From positions 1-29,266 of the IMG/VR virus record IMGVR_UViG_3300009001_001862: a stretch of DNA of 29,266 nucleotides; one strand, written 5' to 3'. The DNA is from a virus. This document shows, piece after piece, positions 1,205 to 26,049 of this stretch (position 1 is the first letter of the stretch; every line of letters begins with the position of its first letter). The notes under the pieces were generated by a model, which was not told where the DNA came from, searched no databases, and saw only the letters and a list, made by a program, of their open reading frames with translations. Made by a program: the position numbers and the translations under genes.

Positions 1205-1221
1205 ACCGATACGGCTTGACG

Positions 1222-2850
1222 ATGCAACCGAGCCAAGGCCAACAACCCGTGTATATCATGCAGAAAGGAACTGAACAAACCAACGGTTCAGCCGCCCAAC
1301 GAAACAACATTCAGGCGGCAAAGGCCGTTGGTGCTGCAATCAAGACCACGCTTGGGCCGTTGGGCATGGACAAGATGCTCATTGACCCTGCGGGGAACGT
1401 CCTCATCACCAACGATGGCGTGTCAATCCTACGTGAGATCGGCATCGAGCATCCAGCCGCCAAGATGATTGTTGAGGTCGCCAAGACTCAGGAAAGCCGT
1501 TGCTATGACGGGACGACCTCAGCCGTGGTTCTCTCAGGGGCTTTGCTTGAAGAGGCTGAACGTTTGCTGGATAAGGGCATCCACCCAACCACAATCTGTA
1601 AAGGATTCCGAATCGCCAAGTCATTTTGTGTTGATGAATTGCGCCACCACGCCGAGTTCATCCTAAATGAAATCGTGGCCGAGTTCGGGCGGGACGGCAA
1701 AGGATTGCCGCCAAACAAACTGTCGTATTATGGGGCTTACAGTTCCTTGACGGGCAAAGCGGCTGAGGGCATTCAGGGGCAATTAGCACAATTGGCTCAG
1801 TCCGTCGTTGGATCGGTGGAGTCCATTGAGGACATTCGCTTCATTTCGGCAAGCGGGACAAACGAAGAGGACACCTATTCCGCACCTGGGATTGTCATTG
1901 AACGTGATTTAGCGAGTCCGATGATGAAGCGAACCATTCAGGAAACACGACTTCTTCTCCTTGATTGCGCTATTGAGCCAAAGAAAACCAACCTTGATGC
2001 TCAGGTTCAAATCACCAACCCTGCACAGGTCGAAGAGTTCTTACGTCAAGAAGAGGATGCGATTCGGGACATGGTGGAATTGATTCAACAATCTGGGGCA
2101 AACGTTGTTTTGACCCAAAAGAAGATTGACGATCTCGCCCTGCATTTCCTCAAGAAGCATGGGATTTCCGCAATTCATTCTGTCAAGAAGTCTGACCTTG
2201 AAGCAGCGAGCCGCATTTCAGGCGCAAGTGTTGTTTCCAGCCTTTCTAACCCCATTAGCGAGAGCGAATTGGGGGAATGCGCCTTCCATGTTTCGGACAA
2301 GTTCGATTACGATTTGGCCCTTATCACGTCGCCAACCTCTCCAATCAAGACTGTTATCGCCTGTGGTGCGACCCCACAGGTTGCTGAGGAAATGGAACGT
2401 GCGCTGGAAGATGCAATCGGTGTCGCTTGGCTGATGAAGGTTGATGATGGCGTGTTGTTGGGCGGGGGCGCAACTCAAGCATTCCTGTATAACCAACTCA
2501 AGACTCGATGCCGTCCAGAAGGACGTGTGCAGATGGCGGTTGATGCCTTCGCTGAGGCGTTGCTACAAATCCCATCAGCCATCGCTGAGAACGCAGGGCT
2601 TGACCCTGTGGATGAACTCATCCTTCTTACCAAACAAAGCCTTGAGTCCGACTACAACTATTTCATTGACGTTGAGCCTCAACAGAAAGACCACCCTAAC
2701 GACGCTTTGAAGCAGGGTATTTTTGAGCCAAAAGCCCTTCATGTTCAGGCCATCACCTCAGCAACGGAGGCTGCGATTATGGTTCTTCGGATTGACGATG
2801 TTATCCGAATGAACCCCTCAGCAGGGCAACCGCCAATGCCTCCAATGTGA
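1222..2850 (+). CDS. Group II chaperonin (thermosome / Cpn60-TCP-1 family)
   Basis: A full-length 542 aa thermosome subunit. These form double-ring ATP-driven folding chambers in the archaeal cytosol. Visible hallmarks: the N-terminal ATP-binding segment [10 protein letters not shown] (residues 44-53), NDGVSIL (64-70), the nucleotide motif as YDGTT (95-99, usually GDGTT), the apical-domain segment with [13 protein letters not shown], the hinge/ATPase segment [13 protein letters not shown] near 414-417, and a C-terminal MPPM tail. Length fits the family. ATG 1222 is chosen over TTG 1216, which would add only two residues. The aspartate thought to activate water is kept (D96), but the Gly before it is Tyr. 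The gene stands alone between short gaps, so it may have its own promoter. A cellular origin of the gene is likely; in a virus it would help fold capsid or tail proteins. Confidence 0.97.
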
Positions 2851-2882: not shown

Positions 2883-3230
2883 ATGGCGAAAACCAAGCGT
2901 GTTCGGGTGAAGATCATCAAAATGATGGAGAAGTTCGGTGAAATGGACACGGCTGAGATTTATGATCGCCTCAACGATTACGATAGCGAGTTCAAAATCC
3001 ACCACGGCATCACCATGCAAGTGTTGGGGAACGTTCTCAGCAAAGAGCCGATCTTCTTGAAAATGGCTGGCGTTGAGGATCAAAACGCCCCTCGATTTGA
3101 GGGGACAAATGGCTACGCTTACAAAATCTCATTGTGGGCTTTGAACAAGAGCCTTCTCAACACACACCCTGAACTCGCTGATGAAAGCACGAACTCCTAT
3201 CGCTTGAGAACTTCAAGGTCGGCATCGTAA
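2883..3230 (+). CDS. Winged-helix-like small protein, 115 aa
   Basis: ATG 2883, no ribosome binding site, with a TATA box 26 bp upstream. Residues about 5-60 read as a helix-turn-helix: RVRVKIIKMMEKFGEMD, TAEIYDRLND, then GITMQVLGNVLSKEPIFLKM, followed by a short strand region YAYKISLWAL. That order suggests a winged-helix DNA-binding domain, and a regulator of neighbouring transcription units is plausible. Family assignment is by pattern only. Confidence 0.7.
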   Translation: MAKTKRVRVKIIKMMEKFGEMDTAEIYDRLNDYDSEFKIHHGITMQVLGNVLSKEPIFLKMAGVEDQNAPRFEGTNGYAYKISLWALNKSLLNTHPELADESTNSYRLRTSRSAS

Positions 3231-7004: not shown

Positions 7005-7114
7005 GGTTCACGGGGCAGACCTGCTCAAAGAGAGGATGCAACAATTTGCTTCGACCTGGGTTCCGTCTTTGCTTTCAATGCACTTACAAGAATGCACCAA
7101 AGGAGGAAGAATGA
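7001..7114 (+). CDS. Very small zinc-finger protein, 37 aa
   Basis: ATG 7001 overlaps the previous stop and its own TGA (7112-7114) overlaps the next ATG at 7111. Four cysteines, at residues 8, 13, 24 and 27 (CSKRGC and CFQC), give a compact zinc-knuckle arrangement that fits the whole protein. Overlaps on both sides and the Cys spacing support a real gene despite its size. Confidence 0.55.
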   Translation: MRFTGQTCSKRGCNNLLRPGFRLCFQCTYKNAPKEEE

Positions 7115-7260
7115 TGGCGAGTCCCGATCAGCAGAAAAAATGCCCCGATTGCGGGAATGATAACATGATTGATGGTGGAGAACGCTTTGACGTATTCTCA
7201 GGACAAAACAAGAAAACCAAGAAGTGTTCTCAATGCAGGAGGTGGATTTACGATGGTTGA
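7111..7260 (+). CDS. Small zinc-ribbon protein, 49 aa
   Basis: Starts at ATG 7111 (or 7114), following AGGAGGAAGA, a strong ribosome binding site. CPDCGNDN (about 11-18) and CSQCRRW (about 39-45) form a textbook zinc ribbon with about 24 residues between the pairs. It overlaps the next gene by 8 bp. It probably binds nucleic acid or a protein partner; which one is unknown. Confidence 0.65.
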   Translation: MMASPDQQKKCPDCGNDNMIDGGERFDVFSGQNKKTKKCSQCRRWIYDG

Positions 7261-7780
7261 AATGCCGACGCCGACCCAAAAAGACGTTGAATGGGCGTAT
7301 TACCTGTGGAACTCACTATCCGTTGGTGAAGGACGTTGGACGCTACCAAATGTGGGCGCATACGTGCGAACTGGTCCGAAAGAATTGACGCTGCGTGAAA
7401 TCCATTTCTCTAAGCCTCAAGAGAACCAATTCGGTTCATCGGTGTTTGACAACCATCATTGGATTATGACGCTCGCTGATGCTATCGGCTGGACTATCAC
7501 GGAAAGCGTCATATTGGCGACGGATAACGACGGTGAAATCAACATTCCAAATGAGTTGGTCGGTCTGGTTTCCGTTTGTGCGAATCGCTGCGGTGCGGTT
7601 TATCGTGTTGAAGAACTTAACACAGGCCAGCAATACGTCAAAATCCAACCCAACCTCGCTTGCCCATGTTGTGGAGATGAACATGCGGTTGAGCCTGTTC
7701 TTGATGGCGTTCATGTCGTCGTTGATGATCGGGGATATGTGGTGAATCAAAACAGGTTGGCTCAACAAGAGGAAGAATGA
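7253..7780 (+). CDS. Hypothetical protein with C-terminal zinc-binding cysteines, 175 aa
   Basis: ATG 7253 is chosen; the frame is open upstream only within the preceding gene. The first 100 residues are mixed and rich in aromatics (VEWAYYLWNSL). CANRCG (about 107-112) and CPCCG (about 136-140) form a likely zinc ribbon around a strand-like YRVEELNTGQQYVKIQP insert. It overlaps the PC4-like gene by 4 bp. Function unknown. Confidence 0.7.
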   Translation: MVEMPTPTQKDVEWAYYLWNSLSVGEGRWTLPNVGAYVRTGPKELTLREIHFSKPQENQFGSSVFDNHHWIMTLADAIGWTITESVILATDNDGEINIPNELVGLVSVCANRCGAVYRVEELNTGQQYVKIQPNLACPCCGDEHAVEPVLDGVHVVVDDRGYVVNQNRLAQQEEE

Positions 7781-8073
7781 TGGCTGGCGAGAATGATTTC
7801 AATTCAAGGGTGTTTGGTGTAGTCCCTACAACGTTCACCCCAGGGTTTGAATTGCACGTTATGACAAGCGAAGCCTACAATTCACGGGTGTTGAACCTAC
7901 GTTTGAATCGGGTCATTCCATCTGTCCGAGGCTATACGGGCTACACAAAACAGGGTTTCATGCTTTCAAGAGATGAAGCGAGATTGCTTCTTGATAAATT
8001 GGTTGAAGTGATTCATGATGATGATGCTTGGGAAGATGAGCCAGATGAAATCGTGGTGATGGATGATGATTGA
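7777..8073 (+). CDS. PC4-like (transcription coactivator p15-type) candidate, 98 aa
   Basis: Residues about 38-80 read VLNLRLNRVIPS...GYTKQGFMLSRDEARLLLDKLVEVI. That is the PC4 pattern of strands, a Lys-x-Gly turn, a 'gxSLsxxEaxxLixxL'-type strand and a closing helix. PC4 family proteins bind single-stranded DNA and assist transcription initiation. The C-terminus is a run of acidic residues (DDDAWEDEPDE...DDD), common in ssDNA-binding proteins. ATG 7777 overlaps the previous stop. It overlaps the TFB-like gene by 11 bp, so both are likely co-translated. The assignment rests on a short pattern and needs a profile search. Confidence 0.45.
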   Translation: MMAGENDFNSRVFGVVPTTFTPGFELHVMTSEAYNSRVLNLRLNRVIPSVRGYTGYTKQGFMLSRDEARLLLDKLVEVIHDDDAWEDEPDEIVVMDDD

Positions 8074-8431
8074 ACGTTGGGAGGAACACCACAGGGAAAC
8101 CATTGAACAACTGGTTGCCCGACTTGATTTACCCGAAGAGATAGTCCCCATTGCCTTTGAGATTTGGAGGGCGGCTCGATTGAAAGCAGCGAGAGTCCCT
8201 AAATCATTGATTGTTGATTGCGTCTATTTGGTCGCCCACATGACAGGGAATCGCCGTTCTATCATTGACATGGCCGACGCAGCACTAAGCGTGATTCAAC
8301 GTCGCACCAAACCATTCAATCAGGATCGGCGGAAGGAAAGCACAAAATGGATTGAAACGGAATGGGCAAAGAAAGTCGTTCTTGAACAAATCCCTGATGA
8401 GCAATTGCTTGAGGATTTCTTGAATAGGTGA
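8063..8431 (+). CDS. TFB/cyclin-like protein with a single cyclin repeat, 122 aa
   Basis: Residues 15-80 resemble one cyclin fold repeat of archaeal transcription factor B. LDLPEEIVPIAFEIWRAARL, then a KSLIVDCVYLVAHMTG helix and NRRSIIDMADAA, match the family pattern 'L.LP..V...A..iyr.A...', '.iaAa.vYaA....g' and 'RTl.EiA..a'. TFB normally has an N-terminal zinc ribbon plus two repeats in about 300 aa; here both the ribbon and one repeat are missing. A small TFB-like protein could compete with or replace host TFB at promoters, or bind TBP-DNA. It overlaps the PC4-like gene, which adds context. Homology is judged by eye. Confidence 0.5.
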   Translation: MMIERWEEHHRETIEQLVARLDLPEEIVPIAFEIWRAARLKAARVPKSLIVDCVYLVAHMTGNRRSIIDMADAALSVIQRRTKPFNQDRRKESTKWIETEWAKKVVLEQIPDEQLLEDFLNR

Positions 8432-8435
8432 TGGT

Positions 8436-9926
8436 GTGAACTACCGCATCTTTGCTGAATCCATGCGGGTCTGCAAAGCCATGCCCAAGGACAAATCAAA
8501 AATCATCAAGAACATGCTTTTGATGTCCCCGTTGAGCCAATGGAAAGTCGCATACCTCTCCCATGCCCCCTCATCAACACATAGGCTCTCCGACGAGGAC
8601 TTGAGGGAGATTTTCTTCCACCTTACCGATCTTTATCCAGAAGAGATGCCCGATTTTTCAAACCCCATCACAATGCTGGCGAACCTGTCAAGGGCGAACA
8701 AAACCGTTGCGACAATTGACAGAATGTTTGAGGCCACAAGAAACGTGCTTGAAACGATGGAATGCAATGAGCGTCGAGCGATTTTGATTCGTCCCTTGTT
8801 TTCACGTGTGGCCTCTCAGGACATGGCGGTTTTCTTCTTGCGACTGAGCAATCACCAAGGCCCAATCAACAGGCATGACATAACAAAAGCACTTGCTCAC
8901 GCTAATGGTGAACTCATGCGACATGTGCGAAAAGCCTCATTCCTGATTGGCTTAGAAAAGGTATGCGATAGGCTATCACGCCAAGAGAGCATCCATGATG
9001 TGTTGAGGCCAGCAATTGGGATGCCTATTGTGATCCCCTCGCCAACAATTGTCAAAATCCAAGACGTGCCTTTCGGACGTTCCCTTCTTGAAATCCCAGA
9101 AGGGGAAAGAATGACCCTGCATGTTCTCAAAGACGATGTTCGCATGTTCAATGCGGCTGGAATTGTTGTTGATGTGGAGGAATCAACATACAAATTGATG
9201 GAGGCTGCACGTATCAAGGAGGGCATTTACCTCATCGAATACGCAAGCGGAAGGGACGTTGAACTGATGTTCCTTGATTTGCTTACACCATCGGTTGAAA
9301 CGATGCCCTTTGAGAAGCGACGTGTTGAGATCGGTTGCCCTAAGTGGTTGTTGAAACCAATGAAAATGATTGATGAGGCAGCGTATTACCTTGAACACGT
9401 TGGGACAAAACAACCAACCGTCCTTTGGAATGCAAACGGCATCCTCACTTACGAGAGTTCAGTCTATGAATCGGTGCTGATGAACGTCCATGAAACGCAC
9501 AAATCTGTTTTCAAGGTGGTTGGCGGGGTCTATGTCAAAGAAACCCCACAGTCCCGCCCCAAATTATCAAAATGGCGTGTTGCAGTTAGGGATGGCGATT
9601 CGTTTTACGAAGTGGGGCTGGTGGACATTGACCCTCGTTTGTCCCTCATGCGTTTTGTCAATCCACACAAAATCGTTGAGGGTGAAGAGGTGTCAATGAA
9701 CACCTCGGTTTTTGTCAATGTCCATGTGATTTCATCTGGTTGGGGGGATTATGGGGCTTACATTCAAGGCGTGATTGAAAGCGTGGCGAGTCGTGCGGGG
9801 CGCAATGATTGTGTTAGCATTGACGAAATCGAAGCCTTGACAAAAAGATGGGATGATGAATATGCAGATATTGACAAAGACATGGACTTCGTGGACTCAA
9901 TGGGCCATGAAGAAGGAGGGAATTGA
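8436..9926 (+). CDS. Degenerate ATP-dependent DNA ligase-like protein, 496 aa
   Basis: GTG 8436 start. The domain order follows archaeal DNA ligase I. The N-terminal DNA-binding domain (about 1-190) has FFLRLSNHQGPINRHDITKA in place of the 'LLGdLriGv.e.tvldAla' segment. The nucleotidyltransferase domain (about 195-340) has IGMPIVIPSPT for 'vG.PirPMLA', LHVLKDDVRMFN for 'vqvHkdGd.v.iysR', and LMFLDLLTPSVETMPFEKRR for 'l.lFDvLYldG..l...p..eRR'. The OB-like C-terminus (about 370-496) has DSFYEVGLVD for 'g.flevGkVg'. The motif I region is EIPEGER (219-225) where active ligases have ExKxDGxR, so the lysine that carries AMP is absent. Ligation is unlikely; nick or DNA-end binding is possible. Length is slightly below the usual 550-600 aa. 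Confidence 0.65.
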   Translation: MNYRIFAESMRVCKAMPKDKSKIIKNMLLMSPLSQWKVAYLSHAPSSTHRLSDEDLREIFFHLTDLYPEEMPDFSNPITMLANLSRANKTVATIDRMFEATRNVLETMECNERRAILIRPLFSRVASQDMAVFFLRLSNHQGPINRHDITKALAHANGELMRHVRKASFLIGLEKVCDRLSRQESIHDVLRPAIGMPIVIPSPTIVKIQDVPFGRSLLEIPEGERMTLHVLKDDVRMFNAAGIVVDVEESTYKLMEAARIKEGIYLIEYASGRDVELMFLDLLTPSVETMPFEKRRVEIGCPKWLLKPMKMIDEAAYYLEHVGTKQPTVLWNANGILTYESSVYESVLMNVHETHKSVFKVVGGVYVKETPQSRPKLSKWRVAVRDGDSFYEVGLVDIDPRLSLMRFVNPHKIVEGEEVSMNTSVFVNVHVISSGWGDYGAYIQGVIESVASRAGRNDCVSIDEIEALTKRWDDEYADIDKDMDFVDSMGHEEGGN

Positions 9927-13175: not shown

Positions 13176-14144
13176 ATGGAAGAGAAAGTCGGCTTGGTTT
13201 GTTTTTCGGGTGGGAAGGATAGCACCGCTATGCTTCTTCGCTTGCTCGAACTTGACGACCCATCCATGCCTGTCAATCGCATTGTGTTTGCCGATACAGG
13301 ATTTGAGTTCCCTGAATTGTTGGAATACATGAACAACGTCATGAAATACATCAACACAAAATATCCAGAAAAGAACCTTGAACTTGAGATGGTCGGTTCT
13401 CCCCGATCATGGGATGATTGGTTCTATGGGGTCATGCAGCGTGGTGCAAACAAAGGAAAGCAACGTGGCGCACCTCTCCGAGCATATCCTTGCTATTGGG
13501 CGAGAGAAGCAAAGGTTCAGCCATTGCAGAAGGTTGCTGAGGAAGCCGACATTGCTTACATTGGCATCGCTGCCGACGAAGCCCACCGTGTCGGAAAGAA
13601 GGACGACCCTCGGAACGCAAAGAACCGATACCCATTGGTTGAATGGGGATGGTCGGAGGATGATTGCATCAAATACCTCGATGGACTCGAAATGGTGAAC
13701 GAACTTTACGTTCACTTTGACCGCTTGGGGTGCTTTCATTGCATCAAACAACCGCTTGATTCATGGTGGAATCTGTGGCGTGGCTATCCTGAGTTTTGGG
13801 AGATTGCCAAGCATTGGGATAAGGAGAGCGTGAAGGTGAGCAATCACGGCCTCCGATCCATGAAGCCTGGAAAGGATGGTTATTTGCTTGAAGAATTGGA
13901 AGAACGATTCAAGCAAGGCTACAAACCCCCATCAAAGAAAGGAAAGTTCGATTGTAAATCATGCAAAGCGGTTTCTTTTACTGCTCTCGGTCAATTGAAG
14001 TTAGAGGATTTCAACATTGAAAACGCACCTGAACTCATTGATGCGAAGTTCATTGACCTTGAGCCAACGGCTGATGAGGTTTTGATTGAACCAGATGATG
14101 ATGTTTCTTGCGATATTGTAGGGGGGTCTTTTGATGATGATTGA
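13176..14144 (+). CDS. PAPS reductase / PP-loop ATP pyrophosphatase-like protein, 322 aa
   Basis: ATG 13176 (an in-frame TTG at 13170 adds two residues). The PP-loop SGGKDST is at residues 11-17. FADTGFEFPE near 38-47 and CYWAREAKVQPLQ near 107-119 match the PAPS-reductase pattern of a cysteine followed by 'K V x P L'. CFHC (about 187-190) and CKSC (about 264-267) may bind Zn or an Fe-S cluster. The domain splits ATP or PAPS to activate a substrate. In viruses such proteins are frequent and suspected in DNA modification, related to DndC of DNA phosphorothioation. Here it abuts a methyltransferase gene, which fits that idea. The chemistry cannot be settled from sequence; sulfur assimilation is the alternative. 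Confidence 0.8.
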   Translation: MEEKVGLVCFSGGKDSTAMLLRLLELDDPSMPVNRIVFADTGFEFPELLEYMNNVMKYINTKYPEKNLELEMVGSPRSWDDWFYGVMQRGANKGKQRGAPLRAYPCYWAREAKVQPLQKVAEEADIAYIGIAADEAHRVGKKDDPRNAKNRYPLVEWGWSEDDCIKYLDGLEMVNELYVHFDRLGCFHCIKQPLDSWWNLWRGYPEFWEIAKHWDKESVKVSNHGLRSMKPGKDGYLLEELEERFKQGYKPPSKKGKFDCKSCKAVSFTALGQLKLEDFNIENAPELIDAKFIDLEPTADEVLIEPDDDVSCDIVGGSFDDD

Positions 14145-14688
14145 TAGAAGTTGGGCAATGCCAAATGCACTTACATTTTCAATACAGCCAATAAAATTAT
14201 TTTTAGAGGAAGAAATCAAAGGGGCTGAATGGGCCGATCCATTCGCAAGAGATACAGATTTAGCAAAATACACAAACGACCTTAACCCCAATACAAAAGC
14301 CAAAGACAACATGGAAGCATTAGATTTTTTGAAAACTTTTGACGACAATTCTCTTGACGGGGTTCTTTTTGATCCTCCCTATTCCCCACGCCAAATTAAA
14401 GAGATGTATGATGAAATAGGAATACCTCTCCATGATACCAAAAGTTCGGTTTGGTCGAATTGGAAAAAAGAAATTGCCAGAATAGTCAAACCTGGTGGCA
14501 AGGTCATATCATTTGGATGGAATACCTGCGGTGTTGGTTTGACACTTGGTTTCAAAATAGAGCGCATATTACTCGTATGTCACGGTGGCAACCATAATGA
14601 TACAATCGTGACACTTGAAGTGAAAGGCAATAAAGCAAACCACCCCTCGGCAAAACAAACGACTCTTTTTCAGGAGGGAGATGAATGA
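14134..14688 (+). CDS. DNA adenine/cytosine-N methyltransferase-like protein, 184 aa
   Basis: Start taken as ATG 14134 (14137 also possible) after a G-rich GTAGGGGGGTC. Catalytic motif DPPYSPRQIKEMYD (motif IV DPPY) and VKPGGKVISFGWNT are clear; GGNHNDTIVTLEVK closes the fold. The 'FxGxG' AdoMet motif is not obvious, so this is the short form of the family seen in tailed viruses. The C-terminus KQTTLFQEGDE contains a clamp-binding-like Q-x-T-L-F. The gene is much more AT-rich than its neighbours: bases 14161-14220 have 16 G+C of 60. This points to recent acquisition. It overlaps both neighbours. Confidence 0.8.
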   Translation: MMIDRSWAMPNALTFSIQPIKLFLEEEIKGAEWADPFARDTDLAKYTNDLNPNTKAKDNMEALDFLKTFDDNSLDGVLFDPPYSPRQIKEMYDEIGIPLHDTKSSVWSNWKKEIARIVKPGGKVISFGWNTCGVGLTLGFKIERILLVCHGGNHNDTIVTLEVKGNKANHPSAKQTTLFQEGDE

Positions 14689-15705: not shown

Positions 15706-16812
15706 GTGCGATACATTAGCCTATTTAGCGGAATCGAGGCAGCAACCGTTGGTTGGCATGACATGGGATGGAACCCCGTCGTCTTTGCCGACTTTGACGA
15801 CTTCCCCTCAGCCGTTCTCAAACATCATTATCCTCACGTTCCAAATGCAGGAGATGTGCTGAAACATGACTGGACGCAATACCGAGGAAAAGCCGATCTC
15901 ATCGTCGGAGGAAGCCCATGCCAGTCTTTTTCCCATGCAGGAAAGCGACTTGGAATGGATGATCCACGTGGCAACTTGGCCCTCCACTACTTACGAATTA
16001 TTAGGGACGTTCAGCCGAAGTGGTTCATCTATGAAAACGTCCCAGGCCTTCTGTCGTCTAACGAAGGACACGATTTCGCCACCTTCCTCGGGGAAATGGT
16101 CAAACTCGGGTATGGGTTCGCCTACCGAGTTCTTGACGCTCAATACTTCGGAGTTCCCCAACGAAGGCGAAGAGTCTTTGTTGTCGGGTGTGCTGATGGC
16201 GATTGGCGAAGTGCCGCAGCAGTTCTATTTGACAAAGAAAGCCTGTGCGGGAATCTTGCGTCGAGCAAAACGAAGAGGCAAGGTTCTTCCCTCTTCTCTC
16301 AAGGCAGCGTTGGAAGCGAAGGCGGGGAATTGGGAAGAGGAATAGAGGTTTTTGAAAACCACCCTCAAGACTCCAGAATCAAGAAAGTTGAGATAGCCCC
16401 AACACTTCACGCAAGAAGCGGAACTGGCGGGAACAATTTGCCGTTGGTGAAAGAAATAGGATTCTCCCACACGCAGGGCTTGGATTGCCAGCCATCAACA
16501 AGACACTTCCCAACGCTACGTGCTGAGGGAGGGGGCATGGCCGTGAGCATTCCAAGCGAACACATTGTCCGTCGCCTCACCCCCATTGAATGCGAGCGTT
16601 TGCAGGGCTTCCCCGACAACTACACCCAGATACCTTGGAAGGGCAGACCTGCACAGGAATGCCCCTCATCTCACCGCTACAAAGCGTTGGGCAACTCAAT
16701 GGCCGTTCCTGTCATGCGGTGGATCGGCATGAGGATTGATATGCTGGATGCGGCAGACCTCCCAAAGCGGGAGAAGTCAAAGACGACCAAGCAAATGACT
16801 TTGTGGGGATGA
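15706..16812 (+). CDS. dcm: DNA (cytosine-5) methyltransferase, 368 aa
   Basis: GTG 15706 is 1 bp after the previous stop, with GGGAGG 9 bp upstream. Motif I is SLFSGIEAATVG (5-16), motif IV GGSPCQSFSHAG has the catalytic Cys at 72, motif VI is YENV (109-112), motif VIII is QRRRRVFVVG, and motif X near the C-terminus is GNSMAVPVM. The target recognition domain lies between about 185 and 300. The enzyme transfers a methyl group from AdoMet to C5 of cytosine in a specific site not predictable here. It ends KQMTLWG, a clamp-binding-like tail. No matching restriction enzyme is visible, so it likely protects viral DNA. Confidence 0.95.
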   Translation: MRYISLFSGIEAATVGWHDMGWNPVVFADFDDFPSAVLKHHYPHVPNAGDVLKHDWTQYRGKADLIVGGSPCQSFSHAGKRLGMDDPRGNLALHYLRIIRDVQPKWFIYENVPGLLSSNEGHDFATFLGEMVKLGYGFAYRVLDAQYFGVPQRRRRVFVVGCADGDWRSAAAVLFDKESLCGNLASSKTKRQGSSLFSQGSVGSEGGELGRGIEVFENHPQDSRIKKVEIAPTLHARSGTGGNNLPLVKEIGFSHTQGLDCQPSTRHFPTLRAEGGGMAVSIPSEHIVRRLTPIECERLQGFPDNYTQIPWKGRPAQECPSSHRYKALGNSMAVPVMRWIGMRIDMLDAADLPKREKSKTTKQMTLWG

Positions 16813-16816
16813 ATCT

Positions 16817-17917
16817 ATGGCCCTCTTCAATCATTTTCCACGTGAAATTGACATGAGGACACGTAAAGTGATTCACAATCGAAAGCAGTTGGAACACTAC
16901 ATCGAAACCACCAACGGCAAAGGCAACCTCACAACCACCGTCTATGGATTCAGGGGATTGAAGCCGAAGGGCAACCGTTGTGAATACAACACGGCCATTG
17001 TTCCTCATTTTGTCATGGATTTTGATGCCGACCAAGGAATACGTGTTCACGACATGGAGGAATCCGAGGCAAAGAGCAGGTGTTGTGATGAGGTGTTGAG
17101 TCTTTCACGACACCTTGACCAAGACTCTCATCGCCATGCCGTGTGGTTCACAGGCGGGGGTTTTCACATTTGGACGAAACTTGACAACGAATACGTGCTG
17201 CCCCCTGAAAAGATGGCCGACCTCCTGTTCTCAGGACGCATGAAAGTCAATGGATGGGTTAAGCGTTTCAACCTCAAGACCCTTGACCCCGTGGTTTCGT
17301 TTAGACCTGATCGCCACATTCGCATCCCTAACACGTTCAACTTCAAACGTCAAATCTGGGGCATTCCTGTCAAGCATGAGGATTTAGAGGCTGGATGGGA
17401 TTTCATCGTTGAGAAGGCCAAAGAACCCAAACCAGGAATGCACCTTTACGGAATAAGCGGGATGCCTCTTGAAATCGTTGAGCGCAGTTCTGTTGATATG
17501 TTCAAGAGCCGCTACAACGAGGAAACGAGGTCATTTGAAATGGAGAACATTGACATTGACATTGAACGCATCAACAACATTCCCATGTTGCCCTGCTTGG
17601 CTCAGGCTGCATGTGAGAAGGGAAGCAACCCTCCACACAAACCCCGATCCTATTTGATGATGTATCTAATGGACTACTTTCGCAACTTCGCTCGACCTGC
17701 GAGGGAGGCCACAGTCCCAAACCATGAGGTGTTGTCATTGACTCACGCATTCATACGCTCGTTGGAATGGGCGGATTATTCACCAACTGAAACGATGAAA
17801 TACCTCACGCATGGCGTTGAGAGGTATTACCTTACACCGACCTGCCCGACCATTTACCATGAGGGATTGTGTGTCGGGAAATGCCCGTATTACGACGAGA
17901 AGGGGGCAACGGCATGA
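16817..17917 (+). CDS. Archaeo-eukaryotic primase, PriS-like domain joined to PriL Fe-S-like domain, 366 aa
   Basis: ATG 16817 after GGGGATGA. The catalytic Asp pair is in HFVMDFDAD (64-72), the nucleotide-binding motif is WFTGGGFHIW (110-119; family form 'FSGrrGfHiw'), and VVSFRPDRHIRIPNTFN (159-174) matches the third motif with Asp and the 'IR.PgS' segment. The C-terminal 120 residues resemble the Fe-S domain of PriL: MLPCLAQAAC (C260, C266), a helical YLMMYLMDYFRNFA, then CPTIYHEGLCVGKC (C343, C352, C356). So both primase subunits appear in one short chain. It would make RNA or DNA primers for replication. A four-Cys zinc site is the alternative to Fe-S. Confidence 0.8.
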   Translation: MALFNHFPREIDMRTRKVIHNRKQLEHYIETTNGKGNLTTTVYGFRGLKPKGNRCEYNTAIVPHFVMDFDADQGIRVHDMEESEAKSRCCDEVLSLSRHLDQDSHRHAVWFTGGGFHIWTKLDNEYVLPPEKMADLLFSGRMKVNGWVKRFNLKTLDPVVSFRPDRHIRIPNTFNFKRQIWGIPVKHEDLEAGWDFIVEKAKEPKPGMHLYGISGMPLEIVERSSVDMFKSRYNEETRSFEMENIDIDIERINNIPMLPCLAQAACEKGSNPPHKPRSYLMMYLMDYFRNFARPAREATVPNHEVLSLTHAFIRSLEWADYSPTETMKYLTHGVERYYLTPTCPTIYHEGLCVGKCPYYDEKGATA

Positions 17918-18957
17918 AATACAAATTGTTGCATGGCGATTGTTCAATCAAAATGAAAGAGATGGATGATAACTCGGTTGAGGCAATTATCACCGATCCC
18001 CCTTATGGTTTGTCATTCATGGGCAAAAAGTGGGATTACGAAGTCCCTTCTGTTGAGATATGGCGTGAAGCCCTTAGAGTCCTCAAACCAGGTGGACACC
18101 TGTTATCCTTTGCTGGTTCACGCACCTATCACCGCATGGCGGTGAACATTGAGGATGCAGGTTTTTGCATCCGTGATCAAATCATGTGGGTGTATTCAAC
18201 GGGCTTCCCGAAGTCGCACAACATAGGCCAAAAGGCCGAGGAATGGGTCGGTTGGGGTTCAGCCCTAAAACCCGCCCATGAGCCTATCGTGGTTGCCCGT
18301 AAGCCCCTTATCGGCACTATCGTTGAGAATGTGCTTAAGCATGGGACGGGTGGCTTGAACATTGACGGTTGCCGTGTGCCGCATAGTGGGAAAGAAGGCG
18401 CATGGGGCGAAGGAAAGAGCAAGGGGTCGATCTATAATGTTGGCGAAGGAAAAAGACATGACGCTGGACGATTCCCCGCTAATTTTATCCACGATGGCTC
18501 GGATGAAGTCGTGGGTCTATTCCCCAACGAAAACGCACGATTCTTTTACTGTGCTAAAACGAGCCAACAAGAAAGGAACGCAGGGCTTGAACACCTCGCT
18601 GATGTTGAGCGCATTGACTACGGCGGCTTTCATAGTGAGGAAGGACTCATCAACAACGGGCGCAACCCTGCGAACCGAATCCCTATGAAGAACCCACACC
18701 CAACTGTTAAGCCCGTGGACTTGATGAAATACCTGTGCCGACTTATCACCCCCCCAAACGGAATCGTTCTTGATCCGTTTATGGGAAGTGGAACAACTGG
18801 TATTGCTGCAACCCAAGAGGGCTTCAATTTCATTGGAATTGAAATGAATGATGAATACATTCAAATCGCAAATCATAGGATTTCACATTGGGTGGAAGAA
18901 AAGCAAGAACTGATTATCGAACAAAGGAAACAAAAGACGTTGTTTGATGGATGGTGA
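17914..18957 (+). CDS. DNA N4-cytosine/N6-adenine methyltransferase, 347 aa
   Basis: ATG 17914 overlaps the primase stop (ATGA). LLHGDCSIKMKEM, then ITDPPYGLSFMGKKWD (motif IV DPPY near 32-35), LKPGGHLLSFAGSRTYHRM, and at the far end DPFMGSGTTGIAA (motif I) and IGIEMNDEYIQIA. The order IV before I makes it a beta-class enzyme. The region from about 110 to 250 is the target recognition part. The tail KQKTLFDGW resembles a sliding-clamp binding peptide. It probably modifies viral DNA; the recognition site and the methylated base are not predictable. Confidence 0.92.
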   Translation: MKYKLLHGDCSIKMKEMDDNSVEAIITDPPYGLSFMGKKWDYEVPSVEIWREALRVLKPGGHLLSFAGSRTYHRMAVNIEDAGFCIRDQIMWVYSTGFPKSHNIGQKAEEWVGWGSALKPAHEPIVVARKPLIGTIVENVLKHGTGGLNIDGCRVPHSGKEGAWGEGKSKGSIYNVGEGKRHDAGRFPANFIHDGSDEVVGLFPNENARFFYCAKTSQQERNAGLEHLADVERIDYGGFHSEEGLINNGRNPANRIPMKNPHPTVKPVDLMKYLCRLITPPNGIVLDPFMGSGTTGIAATQEGFNFIGIEMNDEYIQIANHRISHWVEEKQELIIEQRKQKTLFDGW

Positions 18958-19228: not shown

Positions 19229-19457
19229 AGGCGGGTGGGATAGCCACCGTTGGGAGGTCGGTAAGCAAAACCGACATGCTGCTAAACTCACTATTTTCTG
19301 CAACCAATGTGGTTGTGAACTTCAAGTGTTTGTGAACATCAAAGGTTATCTATGGGAAGTTGGCGAGGTTAATGAAGAAGAAAACACCGTTTATCTCTAT
19401 GACCGTGAGAATCATGAGGAAGAAATCACATTGGAAGTGTTGGAGGCTACTGCATGA
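19209..19457 (+). CDS. Small Cys-containing protein, 82 aa
   Basis: ATG 19209 is in a GGTGGTTGGAA context. CNQCGCEL (about residues 31-38) plus C6 and the early histidines could form a zinc site. The C-terminal half is strongly acidic and strand-like (VNEEENTVYLYDRENHEEE). It overlaps the nuclease gene by 4 bp. Function unknown. Confidence 0.6.
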   Translation: MTETNCEGGWDSHRWEVGKQNRHAAKLTIFCNQCGCELQVFVNIKGYLWEVGEVNEEENTVYLYDRENHEEEITLEVLEATA

Positions 19458-20164
19458 CCGATCAACGGATCCTCTTTATTGACAACCGAGAGCGTTCAGG
19501 GCTTGAGCAGTTGGTTATCAAATACTGCGAGAAAAACAAATTGAACTTTCAAATGCGGCAAACGCTCATCACCGATTATTGCTTTGCTGATGTTGGGATT
19601 GAGGCAAAATCAATTGACGATTACCTATCCAGTCTTTATTCAGGGCATTTGGAACGGCAACTGCAAAACCTTGAGGACAACTACAATTCAGCGATTCTCA
19701 TAATTCATGGAACACTTGACCAGCATATCGCCAACGGAAAGAAGCGAGGAAAGAAAATCCCTTATGCGAAGGTGTTTGGTTCATTTACAGGTTCGCTGGC
19801 GAGGTTTTCAACCGACTACGACATTTCAATTATGACGTTCCCCAACAAATCATTGGCTGCACGTTTCATCTGCAAGCGATTTGAAAAGCATGGGACGCTT
19901 GGCTCATCCTCCACCTATCGTCTGCTTCGAAAGACGGCAACCGAGGACATGAGAATTGACATTTTGCAGGGGGCTGGTTGTAGCCTCGCCATCGCCAAGC
20001 GTTTGCTTGACCTGCATGGTTCAATCGTTGAGATTTCAGGATTGACGGCAAAGGAACTCCAAGCGGTGGAGGGCATCGGCAAAGTCCGAGCCGAGCGCAT
20101 TGTCAAGGCATTCAACTCCGAACAACCAATTGTGCAAGAGAAAGTCAAAATGTCGAGGGCTTGA
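19454..20164 (+). CDS. XPF/ERCC4-family nuclease with HhH domain, 236 aa
   Basis: ATG 19454 overlaps the previous stop (ATGA). The nuclease core has FIDNRER (8-14), TDYCFADVGIEAKSIDDYL (40-58) in place of the family 'GDY......ERK...D' pattern, and YNSAILIIHG. The C-terminal half holds a tandem helix-hairpin-helix: ILQGAGCSLAIAKRLLDLHG and LQAVEGIGKVRAERIVKAF. XPF-type enzymes cut branched or flapped DNA beside single/double-strand junctions. The family Arg of E-R-K is Ala here (E50, A51, K52), but the acidic residues and Lys are present, so activity is plausible. It would resolve recombination or replication intermediates. Confidence 0.85.
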   Translation: MTDQRILFIDNRERSGLEQLVIKYCEKNKLNFQMRQTLITDYCFADVGIEAKSIDDYLSSLYSGHLERQLQNLEDNYNSAILIIHGTLDQHIANGKKRGKKIPYAKVFGSFTGSLARFSTDYDISIMTFPNKSLAARFICKRFEKHGTLGSSSTYRLLRKTATEDMRIDILQGAGCSLAIAKRLLDLHGSIVEISGLTAKELQAVEGIGKVRAERIVKAFNSEQPIVQEKVKMSRA

Positions 20165-21686: not shown

Positions 21687-21872
21687 ATGATGAGAGCGTA
21701 TCGGGATAAGGTCATGCAAACGTGCGTTGGCTGCGATACGGACGTTTTAGCCATTCGAATAAATGGTTTCTATGCGGGTAGTCGTGATAGAATGTTTTTA
21801 TGGGAATGTCCTTTGTGCGAATACATCTGGCGGAAACCAAAACCCGTGTTGGTGAGCAAAAATGACGTGTGA
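21687..21872 (+). CDS. Small zinc-ribbon protein, 61 aa
   Basis: ATG 21687, 1 bp after the helicase stop; the open frame extends upstream only inside that gene. CVGC (about residues 13-16) and CPLCEYIW (about 42-49) give a zinc ribbon with about 25 residues between the pairs. It overlaps the next gene by 11 bp. Role unknown. Confidence 0.6.
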   Translation: MMRAYRDKVMQTCVGCDTDVLAIRINGFYAGSRDRMFLWECPLCEYIWRKPKPVLVSKNDV

Positions 21873-22413
21873 TTGTGCTACCTGCAACTTGCTGGCAAAG
21901 GCCGTCATTGGACGTGAAAAGAATCCATCGCCAGACGCTAAGGCAGGAAAACACGTGTGCGGGACGTGCAACGGAAAGGGCAAGACGCCCAAGTGCGAAA
22001 CCTGCGGCTTCCAATCAACGCCATACGGAACGTTCCGAGCGACCAAACCTTCGCAATGGAAGAACCGCCCTTTCAAGAAAGGAGATCCATACGTCAATTC
22101 ATGGGACGAACCATTGTTGGTTGAAGCCTTGCTTAAGGGCAAAAAATCCTCAAAACCATTCCACGGCTACAATCCAAACCGCCATAGCAAGAAGGGAGGA
22201 TTGAACGCCAAAGGACGTGCTAAGTTCAAGCGTGAACAAGGCTCAAACCTCAAACCCCCTGTCACCGAAAAACCATCAACTCTCAAACCAGGCTCAAAGA
22301 AAGCAAAGCGTCGAAAGTCGTTTTGCGCTCGGATGGGCGGGGTGAAAGGACCGACCAGCAAAGGCGGTAAATTGACACCGAAGGGTGCAGCGTTGAAGCG
22401 TTGGAACTGCTGA
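21862..22413 (+). CDS. Basic virion-type protein with N-terminal zinc fingers, 183 aa
   Basis: ATG 21862. The N-terminus has CDCATC (3-8) and CGTCNGKGKTPKCETC (about 33-48), a DnaJ-like zinc arrangement. From about residue 108 the chain is very basic and ends GGLNAKGRAKFKREQGSNLK, then RRKSFCARMGGVKGP, TSKGGKLTPKGAALKRWNC. That C-terminal block is common in marine tailed viruses (I believe the family is DUF6321), of unknown function. Its basic nature suggests DNA binding, perhaps in packaged virions. It sits at the switch from replication to structural genes. Confidence 0.75.
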   Translation: MTCDCATCNLLAKAVIGREKNPSPDAKAGKHVCGTCNGKGKTPKCETCGFQSTPYGTFRATKPSQWKNRPFKKGDPYVNSWDEPLLVEALLKGKKSSKPFHGYNPNRHSKKGGLNAKGRAKFKREQGSNLKPPVTEKPSTLKPGSKKAKRRKSFCARMGGVKGPTSKGGKLTPKGAALKRWNC

Positions 22414-22422
22414 GGTGTTTGA

Positions 22423-23568
22423 TTGCCGAACACCAATCTGTCCGAGGGTCATGAAAAGACCTCATCATCAACCTATCAAAATGATGGGCTACGTGATACG
22501 GACGTTCTAACCAGTCCATCCTTAACCAATTGGGTTGAGCGTGGCAACGGCAATGGCGTTATCCCGATCACCCTCAACCGATACGACGAATCCGACAGGA
22601 ACAACCCTGTTAGCGGCAACTGTTGTGTTCGACCAAACGGGACGATTGGAAGCACCAAGGAACTCTATGTGGACGCTGGCGTTGTCCAATTGGACGGCAT
22701 GTTTTACAACGTGGGTTCAGCATCAGTCCTTGATATTGCAGCAACGACCAATTATTATTCATCATACCATGCTTCGGCAATCCCAAATGGGACAAACCCA
22801 AACGACGAAGCAATCCTTTTGGTTTATGTTGATCCTCGCTTGCCCAACAACGTTGGCTTTGTTTATGGTTCATACGTTGATACCTCCACAGGACTATACC
22901 CACAATCGCCTTCAAACCACCTTGTCTTGCAGAACACGGTGCTTGCCGCAGTTCGGGTGGGCAAAGGGGCTTCAAACCCCGTTATCCTCGCCATAGAGGA
23001 TAAGAGGGTGTTTCACCGACCTGGGCCTGTTGCATTGTCGGCAATCGAGCATAGCGATGGGACGGAGGAAAACCTTCGCAACGACTTTGTTTCAGGATTT
23101 AACGCCGCCGACCTTCCTATCACCGAACTTGGCGTCCTCTATGCACGTGATCCAAGCGGCTTCACCGATTTTCCCCAAGGAACAGGTCAAACGCACTTAT
23201 TCTTTCAATCCGACCAAGGCTTGGGAATCACGGCTGGCGGGGGTGGTGCGTATCAAATCACCCCTATTCATCGGACATCAAAGACACCTTCAATCCCTTA
23301 CGTCGGGCCAACAGTCCTAAACTTTGGAATTGCTGCCCCTGCTGGCCTCCTTTACAAGCCCCTGCAAAGCGAAGAGGACGGGGCAACTCATTTGGTTAAT
23401 GTGGACGTTTATGGCGTTGGCAACGCTTTTTTGGGGACGCTGATTGAAACGCTTCACTACACCGTCAATGCTGGTGATTTGACATTGAACGATCCAGCCA
23501 CCCTACCAGCAGGTTTCGCAACGGCTACGCAAGCCGTTATCACCTACACCCACGCTCAACACGTTTAG
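22423..23568 (+). CDS. Putative tail fibre or baseplate protein, 381 aa
   Basis: TTG 22423 with GAGGTG 8 bp upstream; the first in-frame ATG is far inside. The sequence is rich in Asn, Gly, Thr and Ser with many short strands, and lacks long helices, as in fibre and receptor-binding proteins. Segments such as VDAGVVQLDGMFYNVG and ILLVYVDPRLPNNVGF resemble baseplate/fibre proteins of tailed viruses; GLGITAGGGGAYQITP is a glycine-rich loop. The last part (from about 330) forms another small beta domain. It is the only clear structural-type gene on the + strand, facing the late - strand operon. Precise role uncertain. Confidence 0.6.
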   Translation: MPNTNLSEGHEKTSSSTYQNDGLRDTDVLTSPSLTNWVERGNGNGVIPITLNRYDESDRNNPVSGNCCVRPNGTIGSTKELYVDAGVVQLDGMFYNVGSASVLDIAATTNYYSSYHASAIPNGTNPNDEAILLVYVDPRLPNNVGFVYGSYVDTSTGLYPQSPSNHLVLQNTVLAAVRVGKGASNPVILAIEDKRVFHRPGPVALSAIEHSDGTEENLRNDFVSGFNAADLPITELGVLYARDPSGFTDFPQGTGQTHLFFQSDQGLGITAGGGGAYQITPIHRTSKTPSIPYVGPTVLNFGIAAPAGLLYKPLQSEEDGATHLVNVDVYGVGNAFLGTLIETLHYTVNAGDLTLNDPATLPAGFATATQAVITYTHAQHV

Positions 23569-24803
23569 AAATCCATTAGGGTTTTTCTAAGGCTTTTCGC
23601 CCTTTGGACATTTTCAGGGAAGTTCCGAAGGCCGAGCATTTCAACAACAGGCATGTTGGTTGATTTTGGTTTCCGAACCCACGTGTGCAAATCAAAATCA
23701 TTGTCCAATAAATCGGAAACCAAATCCTCATTTGGAACTCCATGTTTTGCCCCAATCAAATAATTTGAATAAACAACAGGTCCGTCATGCTTTGCACCGA
23801 TTTTCACGGTGTCCCTTTGCAGTTGGTCATAGCCGCCCCCTGACAACTGTTCGTCGGAACCGCCATATTGGTGAACACGATCCACGTATTGCGGGTCAAG
23901 GTAAAGGAACTCATCGCCTTGGAGAAGTTTTGAGGTATCTCGCAAATCGCCCGTGTGAACTTCCACTTCTCGGAGTCTTTCTGGGTATGCGCTCATGTCA
24001 ATTCCTCCAACGTCATACGGCATAACTCTTGATGGTTGTTTTCGCCAACCGCTATTCAATATCGGCCCTTCGGTATATCCCGAACCAGAATACCATTCGG
24101 GATAATCTGCACGTTTCGTTTTGCTTGGATATTTCAGGTTTCCAAATGCTTGATGGTTTGAACCAATGTAAAGTTGAGCAAGTTCGGACAATTCATCACT
24201 TGACAACGACTCATTTTTCACATCTCTTCGATAGCGCAAATCATTCATACGTTCAATCATTTCATTCATTCGTTCTCTTGTTCTTGGGATTTCAACAACA
24301 CCCAATCCGTCTTTCAAATGCTGAAAAGCATTGGTGTTGTCTGGATTTATGTCTGCATAAAATCCTGTGCCTCTATTCAGTCCGAGGATAGTTGAAGCAC
24401 TTCCACCATACAATTCAGCAGGTCGGGCTTCAGGGAAAAAATCAGCAAGCCCTCTCATGTAAGGCTGAATCTGTGTTTTTCCTCCAACCCAAGGGAACAT
24501 TGATGGAAGCATTTGCGAACTTGAATTGAAACCAGGGTTCTGTGTGATAAAATCGCTCAATCCCCGATCTCTCATGCCTTTCCAAGACTTATTTTGATAA
24601 CTCCCGCTTTTGTAAGGGAACGGGAAGGGGGACAATTTCTTTGATTCAGCCCGTTCCTTCTTCGTTTGTCCCTTCCCGTAATTTTTGAGTTGCGGGAAAA
24701 GGGTTTCCAACAAGTTATCCATGTCATGGTAGGGGATGCCCTCATGAAAAATATCGGCCTTCATCAAATCCCATGCAGCATCAAAGATCATATCAAGCCT
24801 CAC
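23565..24803 (-). CDS. Dam-like (D12-class) DNA adenine methyltransferase with N-terminal extension, 412 aa
   Basis: ATG at 24803 overlaps the upstream peptidase gene by 4 bp. Motif I is FPWVGGKTQ (103-111) with ELYGGSASTILGL (about 129-141), FYADINPDNTNAF (about 147-159) is the next AdoMet-binding part, and the catalytic motif reads DPQY (303-306) instead of DPPY. Around it are YLDPQYVDRVHQYGG and VVYSNYLIGAKHG. The first 100 residues are an extension: IFDAAWDLMKADIF (6-19) shares the F..AW..MK.D motif with two neighbours, then a basic stretch. It stands apart from the other methyltransferases, in the late operon. It may be packaged or simply late expressed. The Pro-to-Gln change could weaken activity. 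Confidence 0.8.
   Translation of the reverse strand: MRLDMIFDAAWDLMKADIFHEGIPYHDMDNLLETLFPQLKNYGKGQTKKERAESKKLSPFPFPYKSGSYQNKSWKGMRDRGLSDFITQNPGFNSSSQMLPSMFPWVGGKTQIQPYMRGLADFFPEARPAELYGGSASTILGLNRGTGFYADINPDNTNAFQHLKDGLGVVEIPRTRERMNEMIERMNDLRYRRDVKNESLSSDELSELAQLYIGSNHQAFGNLKYPSKTKRADYPEWYSGSGYTEGPILNSGWRKQPSRVMPYDVGGIDMSAYPERLREVEVHTGDLRDTSKLLQGDEFLYLDPQYVDRVHQYGGSDEQLSGGGYDQLQRDTVKIGAKHDGPVVYSNYLIGAKHGVPNEDLVSDLLDNDFDLHTWVRKPKSTNMPVVEMLGLRNFPENVQRAKSLRKTLMDF
23582..23586 (+). terminator. Possible T-run terminator for the + strand operon
   Basis: TTTTT lies 14 bp after the + strand stop and inside the 3' end of the - strand gene, within TTAGGGTTTTTCTAA. Archaeal termination uses short T-runs on the coding strand. 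The short run makes this weak. Confidence 0.25.
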
Positions 24804-25846
24804 CTCTTAGTGCTTGCTCTTTTGCCACCTGCGCCTAATTGACGACGCATGGCGGGGCGAATCGTCCCCCTGCTCTTATTGCGAGCATAACGCCTCTTTG
24901 TGCGTTCTCGCTTGACTTTACGTGAGATGTCCCAGACTCGGTGTTCAGCCTGTCGGTATGGTCTGTTGCTGATGTTGGATTGGGTGTAGCCGTGAAAGCG
25001 ACCTTTGCTGATTGAATCCCATGCGACTTTGAATGGTTCGGTTGATGCTACGATTAAATCATCTGTGATGTCATATTCGTAATTTGGGTCGTCTTGCGGC
25101 AAAATGAAGTCGTTGGAACCTTGATCGTAAAAACGATCTTGGGCGAGTTGTCGTGCCTTTGGAATGATAGACTGTTGTTCATATCCTCTCCTACCATGTA
25201 TTGCTTCTCTTGTGGCTTGTTCAAGAACATGGGCTGGCATCTCGGTTTGAAACTTTGAACCACGTCCCTGTTGAGAGTCAAGAACATGACCAATTTCATG
25301 AGCCATGACAGGTGCAAGACGATTTGTAAAACGAGCAACCGTTTTTTCGCCAAAATCTTTGTCGGGCATAGCCAACATTCCTTGTTTATCAGTCCGAAAC
25401 ATGGCTGAATCACCGTGAAACTTAAGTCCGTATGGAGTCAAAGCCACCATTTGGCGTGTGTTTCCTTGTTCATCAGGTGCGGTATAACCCGACCATGCGG
25501 GGGTCATTGATGAGCCAGTTGGTAAATCTCGAATGTCATACATGATTTTGCGCTCGGATTTGACCATCGTTGGCTTCCCACCAACGCCCTGTGGCTTTGA
25601 CCGCTTCCTGCGAGTCATTGCCTTCTTCTCATTCGAACTGATGCCACGTGTGGTTGTAGGGGTCTTGCTGCTGACCTTCTTTGATGGTCGGCACTTGGGG
25701 TAGCCCCTGCTATCCGTCTTGGCCTCATCACGCCCACAGGGGGGGTGAGATCCGTCTTTGTCCTTACGTGAAACGTCCACCCACTTCTCCTTGAACCATC
25801 GCCTCAAGTCCTTTGAGATGAGGTCGGAAATGGGGGTGTCAATCAT
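24800..25846 (-). CDS. Zincin-type metallopeptidase fused to an N-terminal RWFKEKW/CGR module, 348 aa
   Basis: ATG at 25846. Residues about 11-52 hold DLRRWFKEKWVDVSRKDK, then HPPCGRDEAKTDSRGYPKC. I have seen this short Cys-containing block in other marine tailed-virus proteins, but its function is not known to me. A basic linker follows (TRRKRSKPQGVGGKP). The C-terminal domain has MAHEIGHVLDSQQG with the HExxH zinc site at 183-187 and the Gly/Asp type seen in metzincin-like and phage peptidases. A second basic tail ends the protein. Possible roles are capsid or tail maturation, or cell wall/S-layer cleavage. It overlaps both neighbours by 4 bp. Confidence 0.7.
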   Translation of the reverse strand: MIDTPISDLISKDLRRWFKEKWVDVSRKDKDGSHPPCGRDEAKTDSRGYPKCRPSKKVSSKTPTTTRGISSNEKKAMTRRKRSKPQGVGGKPTMVKSERKIMYDIRDLPTGSSMTPAWSGYTAPDEQGNTRQMVALTPYGLKFHGDSAMFRTDKQGMLAMPDKDFGEKTVARFTNRLAPVMAHEIGHVLDSQQGRGSKFQTEMPAHVLEQATREAIHGRRGYEQQSIIPKARQLAQDRFYDQGSNDFILPQDDPNYEYDITDDLIVASTEPFKVAWDSISKGRFHGYTQSNISNRPYRQAEHRVWDISRKVKRERTKRRYARNKSRGTIRPAMRRQLGAGGKRASTKR

Positions 25847-26049
25847 TTCTTTTTCCCCTTTTTCTTCCAGCCGCCGCCTTTGGATTTATACCACTTAGCA
25901 GCCCAACCGTTGGCGTAGGCTGATGGATAAACCTTGAACTTGGAACGTGCCTTTGATTTGGCTTGCGACCAAAGACCAGGATTAGTTGGGGCGTTGTCGC
26001 CCTTCTCGTCGCTTTTCATCAGTTCCCATGCAATCTCAAAATTGCTCAT
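25843..26049 (-). CDS. Small basic virion-associated-type protein, 68 aa
   Basis: ATG at 26049. NFEIAWELMKSDEKGD (3-18) carries the F..AW..MK.D motif. NPGLWSQAKSKARSKFKVYP (about 23-42) and SAYANGWAAKWYKSKGGGWK (about 43-62) follow, and the chain ends KKKGKKK. The middle block recurs in marine tailed viruses, often fused to other domains. High Lys content suggests DNA or capsid contact. It overlaps both neighbours by 4 bp. Confidence 0.7.
   Translation of the reverse strand: MSNFEIAWELMKSDEKGDNAPTNPGLWSQAKSKARSKFKVYPSAYANGWAAKWYKSKGGGWKKKGKKK

What the first reader, a model, noticed from the sequence alone, without database searches (positions are those of the whole stretch)
8063..8431. A virus-encoded TFB-like protein with a single cyclin repeat
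Cellular TFB has a zinc ribbon and two cyclin repeats. Here one repeat-like domain stands alone in 122 aa. Such a protein could compete with host TFB on TBP-DNA, or direct RNA polymerase to viral promoters. I know of no well described system of this kind.
Basis: partly seen in the sequence, partly recalled or inferred. Interest (0 to 1): 0.7.

Follow-up and report, generated by a model that had tools for sequence, protein, structure and literature searches.

The report
Viral half-TFB with one cyclin repeat
A family of tailed viruses, probably of archaea, encodes a small protein that is one half of the core of the host's promoter-recognition factor TFB without the part that recruits RNA polymerase, so it may block or redirect host gene expression, although nobody has tested what it does.

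Summary
Window 8063-8431 (+) is a real, conserved 122-aa gene (homologues 39-77% identical in 17 IMG/VR contigs; dN/dS about 0.12; same neighbours in every locus). Its predicted structure is confident (pLDDT 92.7) and is one cyclin fold. Profile evidence points to TFIIB/TFB: Pfam TFIIB matches 10 of 11 members; a family profile against PDB sequences hits only TFIIB/TFB; an archaeal TFB repeat-2 profile ranks the viral copies 1-10 among 4026 viral reading frames. It resembles the second (C-terminal) TFB repeat slightly more than the first. It has no zinc ribbon, B-reader or second repeat, and the tight helix 4-helix 5 turn that forms TFB's BRE-reading helix-turn-helix is replaced by a conserved basic 22-residue loop. 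No second TFB-like gene and no TBP was found in the relatives searched. Full-length TFBs are known in other archaeal viruses; I found no stand-alone single-repeat form in the literature searched. Best guess: a core-only TFB derivative acting at host TBP-promoter complexes, by analogy with the inhibitory artificial TFBc. The function is inferred; a DNA or protein adaptor in the viral replication operon is a serious rival. New variant of a known kind.

The parts
8063..8431 (+). Gene for the stand-alone single cyclin-repeat TFB-like protein, 122 aa
8093..8290 (+). Residues 11-76 (helices H1-H4): the stretch that matches TFB/TFIIB cyclin repeats
   Evidence: Pfam 11-73; hhalign to archaeal TFB repeat 1 and repeat 2
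8198..8260 (+). Residues 46-66: H3 and the H3-H4 loop (PKSLIVDCVYLVAHMTGNRRS), the best conserved stretch of the family; AHMTGNRRS invariant in 11 members
8294..8359 (+). Residues 78-99: basic 22-residue loop (net +3 to +5 in all members) in place of the short H4-H5 turn of TFB
8360..8389 (+). Residues 100-109: predicted helix H5
7777..8073 (+). Upstream partner gene, 98 aa, overlaps the TFB-like gene by 11 bp; conserved in every locus; family unclear (weak PC4-like hints only)
8436..9926 (+). Downstream conserved gene, 496 aa, no known family
7111..7260 (+). Small CxxC-CxxC zinc-ribbon ORF (start 7111 or 7114), conserved in nine relatives; possible but unproven trans partner

Best explanation
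The gene encodes one TFIIB/TFB-type cyclin repeat, probably derived from a TFB core and closest to its C-terminal repeat. Most likely the virus makes it to act at host promoters: it would bind host TBP-DNA or the pre-initiation complex through the cyclin fold but, having no zinc ribbon or B-reader, could not itself recruit and activate RNA polymerase. It would therefore work like the experimental core-only 'TFBc', competing with host TFB and lowering host transcription or biasing it towards viral promoters. Shown: a conserved gene, the (predicted) fold, TFB-repeat descent, absence of the other TFB domains in the protein, a thermosome gene pointing to an archaeal host. Inferred: contact with TBP, DNA or RNAP, and the direction of the effect.
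For: TFIIB is the only Pfam family shared by most members (10 of 11) and the only family hit in PDB sequences, through both repeats. Confident one-domain cyclin fold whose best solved matches are TFIIB cores (VIA-align Z 11.3, rmsd 2.2 over 96 residues; archaeal 1d3u Z 10.5). Profiles from archaeal TFB repeats single the gene out of 4026 viral frames (ranks 1-10 with the repeat-2 profile); hhalign scores 30.2 and 33.9 against at most 17.4 for shuffled alignments. Archaeal host: thermosome above the curated cut-off and a Hef/XPF-type nuclease in the same record. Precedent: TFB core alone binds TBP-promoter DNA, fails to recruit RNAP and outcompetes TFB (PMC8448881). Purifying selection.
Against: TFBc has two cyclin repeats; whether one repeat alone can hold TBP-DNA is unknown. 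The helix-turn-helix used for BRE contact is not kept at TFB spacing. Net charge of the protein is near zero, not strongly basic. The gene sits in a block that also holds probable DNA-metabolism genes rather than beside regulators. No viral promoter motif could be found, as the genomes are nearly gapless. A shared fold shows no function.
Confidence: 0.42

Rival explanations
1. A cyclin-fold adaptor or DNA-binding protein for viral DNA replication or recombination, derived from TFB but no longer touching the transcription machinery. It would act with the neighbours it is always co-encoded with (98-aa, 496-aa, 167-aa, 437-aa, 412-aa proteins).
For: Invariant linkage to the same block in all ten loci, 11-bp overlap with the 98-aa gene in the window; loss of the canonical helix-turn-helix; invariant H3-H4 segment and basic H4-H5 loop peculiar to the family.
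Against: The neighbours have no assigned function here, so 'replication block' is itself an inference; operons in compact viral genomes mix functions.
Confidence: 0.3
2. A positive factor: half of a split viral TFB. The repeat (as a monomer or homodimer) works with a zinc-ribbon protein encoded in trans, such as the conserved 7111-7260 ORF, to bring host RNAP to viral promoters.
For: A small C4 zinc-ribbon ORF lies two genes upstream in the window and in nine relatives; TFB3 activates transcription in trans together with full TFB (PMC7289017).
Against: That ORF is not specifically TFB-like: its hits are to many generic zinc ribbons, the cysteine pairs are about 24 rather than 15 residues apart, and the TFIIB zinc-ribbon models match weakly. 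No B-reader or linker found.
Confidence: 0.18
3. Not TFB-derived: a different cyclin-like or generic helical protein that resembles TFIIB by chance or convergence.
For: The single-sequence Pfam score is just under the curated cut-off; cyclin C and Rb chains score nearly as high in structure comparison; Foldseek E-values are modest (best 9e-3).
Against: Sequence profiles hit TFIIB and no other cyclin family; shuffled and neighbour controls give nothing.
Confidence: 0.07

Closest known systems
Archaeal TFB / eukaryotic TFIIB core (Pyrococcus woesei TFBc, PDB 1d3u and 1ais)
   Same: Cyclin fold; helices 1-4 align in sequence with both repeats, slightly better with repeat 2
   Different: One repeat instead of two; no zinc ribbon, B-reader or linker; H4-H5 turn replaced by a basic loop
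Virus-encoded full-length TFBs: Acidianus, Metallosphaera and Saccharolobus rod-shaped viruses, Halorubrum tailed virus, Aoguangviridae (magrovirus) TFB
   Same: Archaeal virus carrying a gene related to TFB
   Different: The rudivirus and Halorubrum-virus copies align over 91-96% of a full TFB (282 and about 310 aa); the window gene has one repeat only. The magrovirus TFB could not be examined (record not held)
Sulfolobus TFB3
   Same: Naturally shortened TFB relative lacking the B-finger and the BRE helix-turn-helix (PMC2246294)
   Different: TFB3 keeps the zinc ribbon; the viral protein has no zinc ribbon and keeps a cyclin repeat
Artificial TFBc (cyclin folds only) used to block re-initiation
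   Same: Cyclin part without the RNAP-recruiting domain (PMC8448881)
   Different: Made in the laboratory, two repeats

Membership tests
TFB/TFIIB | TFIIB-type cyclin repeat sequence | tested here: met
   Pfam PF00382 in 10 of 11 members although each under the curated cut-off; PDB profile hits only TFIIB; repeat-2 profile ranks 1-10 of 4026 frames
TFB/TFIIB | Two tandem cyclin repeats | tested here: not met
   122 aa, one domain; at most one TFIIB match per record, at this gene
TFB/TFIIB | N-terminal zinc ribbon | tested here: not met
   1-3 cysteines per member, no CxxC pair
TFB/TFIIB | B-reader and B-linker | tested here: not met
   Nothing precedes helix 1, which starts at residue 2
TFB/TFIIB | Helix-turn-helix of repeat 2 that reads the BRE | tested here: not met
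   H4 ends at 77 and the next helix starts at 100 in the model; TFB has a turn of a few residues. Based on a predicted structure
TFB/TFIIB | Binds TBP-TATA DNA and RNAP | not testable with these tools
   needs biochemistry or a complex prediction
Cyclin-fold superfamily | Five-helix cyclin fold | tested here: met
   pLDDT 92.7, pTM 0.88; Z 9.6-11.3 to TFIIB, cyclins and Rb
Sulfolobus TFB3-type truncated TFB | Zinc ribbon kept | tested here: not met
   No cysteine pairs
Magrovirales | Family B DNA polymerase | tested here: inconclusive
   PF00136 found in none of 7 records, five of them 90-107 kb, but the records may be fragments
Virus of an archaeal host | Archaeal signature genes | tested here: met
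   Thermosome alpha and beta models over cut-off; Hef nuclease match. Host order not determined

The most novel reading that the evidence does not exclude
A natural single-repeat 'half TFB' by which tailed archaeal viruses occupy or remodel TBP-promoter complexes, using the conserved AHMTGNRRS loop and the basic H4-H5 loop in place of the BRE helix-turn-helix, to switch transcription from host to virus.
Probability: 0.35. Interest if true: 0.75.

Novelty: new variant of a known kind. Interest (0 to 1): 0.55.

Why it matters
Very little is known of how archaeal viruses take over host transcription; RIP of ATV is the main worked example of a viral protein acting on RNAP (PMC5123050, abstract). 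A minimal, well-conserved one-repeat TFB relative would be a compact handle on which TFB parts suffice for TBP-DNA binding, and a possible agent of host shut-off or promoter switching in uncultured viruses.

Tried and rejected
Split-TFB zinc ribbon: the small 7111-7260 ORF is conserved but generic; the TFIIB zinc-ribbon model also gives weak hits in a 637-aa gene and in virion-side proteins, and rings in all 14 control genomes including bacteria, so not pursued. 98-aa neighbour as PC4 coactivator: one weak Pfam hit (E 0.21), low-confidence model (pLDDT 72), PC4 chains only at low rank (Foldseek rank 32, Z 2.6): left open. 496-aa neighbour looked ligase-like by eye; no profile support. Cellular homologues: no confirmed hit in genome contigs, nor in 5 and 23 archaeal genomes of other lineages; these searches are not decisive. 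Promoter motifs upstream of viral genes: only 25 usable gaps, no clear TATA/BRE signal. Named Poseidoniales virus records ON649702, PP497040 and OR863078 are not held, and window proteins have no relatives in the phage collection that would place the virus. The Poseidoniales virus survey PMC11706807 is not held.

Full report
What is there. The window is a 29,266-base viral record of its own. The ORF at 8063-8431 (+) encodes 122 aa. Close and distant homologues lie in 17 IMG/VR contigs, down to 39-43% identity, on contigs up to 107 kb. Synonymous change far exceeds amino-acid change (dN/dS 0.11-0.12 for the pairs that could be computed; synonymous sites saturated for L021). Gene order around it is the same in ten relatives, including the most distant: small zinc-ribbon ORF, 203-aa gene, 98-aa gene, TFB-like gene, 496-aa gene, then genes of 167, 437 and 412 aa, except where a contig ends or, in L011, where a short extra stretch separates the 98-aa gene from the TFB-like gene.

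Is it TFB? One sequence alone gives Pfam TFIIB at E 8.2e-5, just under the curated cut-off. Ten of eleven family members match the same model independently, and in fifteen of sixteen viral records searched the TFIIB model finds this gene and nothing else. A profile of the family against all PDB sequences returns eight chains up to E 10, all TFIIB/TFB, matching both repeats. NCBIfam's archaeal TFIIB model matches through its second repeat. I collected archaeal TFBs, split a diverse set of 15 into repeats, and compared: hhalign 30.2 (repeat 1) and 33.9 (repeat 2) against at most 17.4 in 30 column-shuffled controls and 7.8-14.0 for four neighbouring families. Used as HMMs against 4026 reading frames of these viruses, the repeat-2 profile places the TFB-like genes in ranks 1-10; the repeat-1 profile does so less cleanly. 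The resemblance is therefore specific, and somewhat closer to the C-terminal repeat; the assignment to repeat 2 is a lean, not a proof.

Structure. AlphaFold2 with the 11-member alignment gives pLDDT 92.7, pTM 0.88. The best matches among solved structures are TFIIB cores (Z 11.3, 96 residues, rmsd 2.2; archaeal 1d3u Z 10.5), followed closely by cyclin C, cyclin T and Rb, so the fold alone would only say 'cyclin'; the sequence says TFIIB. In the viral structure library the leading named matches are giant-virus TFIIB/Brf proteins and the SSRV1 TFB, all with modest E-values. Helices H1-H4 align with TFB. The tight turn to H5, part of TFB's BRE-reading helix-turn-helix, is replaced by residues 78-99, a basic loop with net charge +3 to +5 in every member; the H3-H4 segment AHMTGNRRS is invariant.

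What is missing. No zinc ribbon, B-reader or second repeat in the protein. No second TFIIB match in any of sixteen records, five of them 90-107 kb, and no TBP match in the eight records tested for it; records may be fragments. The small zinc-ribbon ORF upstream is conserved but generic.

Host. The record encodes a thermosome above the archaeal equivalog cut-offs and a Hef/XPF-like nuclease, so the host is very probably an archaeon. No family B polymerase was found in seven records, unlike described Magrovirales. I could not place the virus or name the host order.

How it may work. Literature: the zinc ribbon recruits RNAP and the second cyclin fold contacts the BRE (PMC7289017); TFB reduced to its cyclin folds still binds TBP-promoter DNA, fails to recruit RNAP and outcompetes TFB (PMC8448881); Sulfolobus TFB3, the opposite truncation, abolishes the TFB1-RNAP interaction in pull-downs (PMC2246294) and activates transcription in trans (PMC7289017). 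From these the most economical reading is a TFBc-like competitor or modifier at TBP-promoter complexes. This is inference: nothing here shows contact with TBP, DNA or RNAP. Loss of the BRE helix-turn-helix geometry and the fixed linkage to a block that may serve DNA metabolism keep a replication-adaptor role open, and a split, positive factor is possible.

Known or new. Viral TFBs as such are known and, where examined, full length; ICTV also labels a TFB in Aoguangviridae. I found no description of a stand-alone single-repeat TFB relative in viruses in nine full-text searches, within the limits of that library. I rate it a new variant of a known kind.

Noticed in passing
window 23565-24803 (-), 25843-26049 (-), 26046-26450 (-); L127, L130, L131, L132: A short N-terminal motif F-x-x-A-W-x-[LIV]-[LM]-K (consensus about MTAFDTAWSLLKMP) starts many otherwise different proteins, all on the minus strand (virion side in the window): 17 of 253 ORFs in three records against 0.065 expected in shuffles. 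It could be a capsid- or virion-targeting tag.
   Followed up: partly
window 1216-2850 (+): Virus-encoded group II chaperonin (thermosome alpha/beta over curated cut-offs), conserved in relatives at 44-82%; described magroviruses instead carry GroEL/GroES according to the ICTV text.
   Followed up: partly
window 7111-7260 (+): Small C4 zinc-ribbon protein, CPDCGN...CxQCRRW, conserved in nine relatives at the same place.
   Followed up: partly
window 7777-8073 (+): 98-aa protein with an invariant TGYTKQG motif; strand-strand-strand-helix model of low confidence, PC4-like hint only.
   Followed up: partly
window 8436-9926 (+): 496-aa protein conserved in all loci checked, no convincing match in Pfam, NCBIfam, PHROGs or PDB sequences.
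   Followed up: partly
window 19454-20164 (+): Hef/XPF-type ERCC4 nuclease with helix-hairpin-helix.
   Followed up: no
window 14131-14688, 15706-16812, 17869-18957 (+), 23565-24803 (-): Several DNA methyltransferase-like genes (the last by profile; the others by reading motifs); the 14131 gene is present in only some relatives.
   Followed up: no
window 21862-22413 (+), 24800-25846 (-), 2883-3230 (+): Carriers of DUF6321, DUF5872 and (near threshold) DUF3860; the DUF5872 part has relatives in Pelagibacter phages.
   Followed up: no
L011 381-538: In this relative a short extra stretch with a cysteine- and histidine-rich small frame separates the 98-aa gene from the TFB-like gene, so the two do not always overlap.
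   Followed up: no
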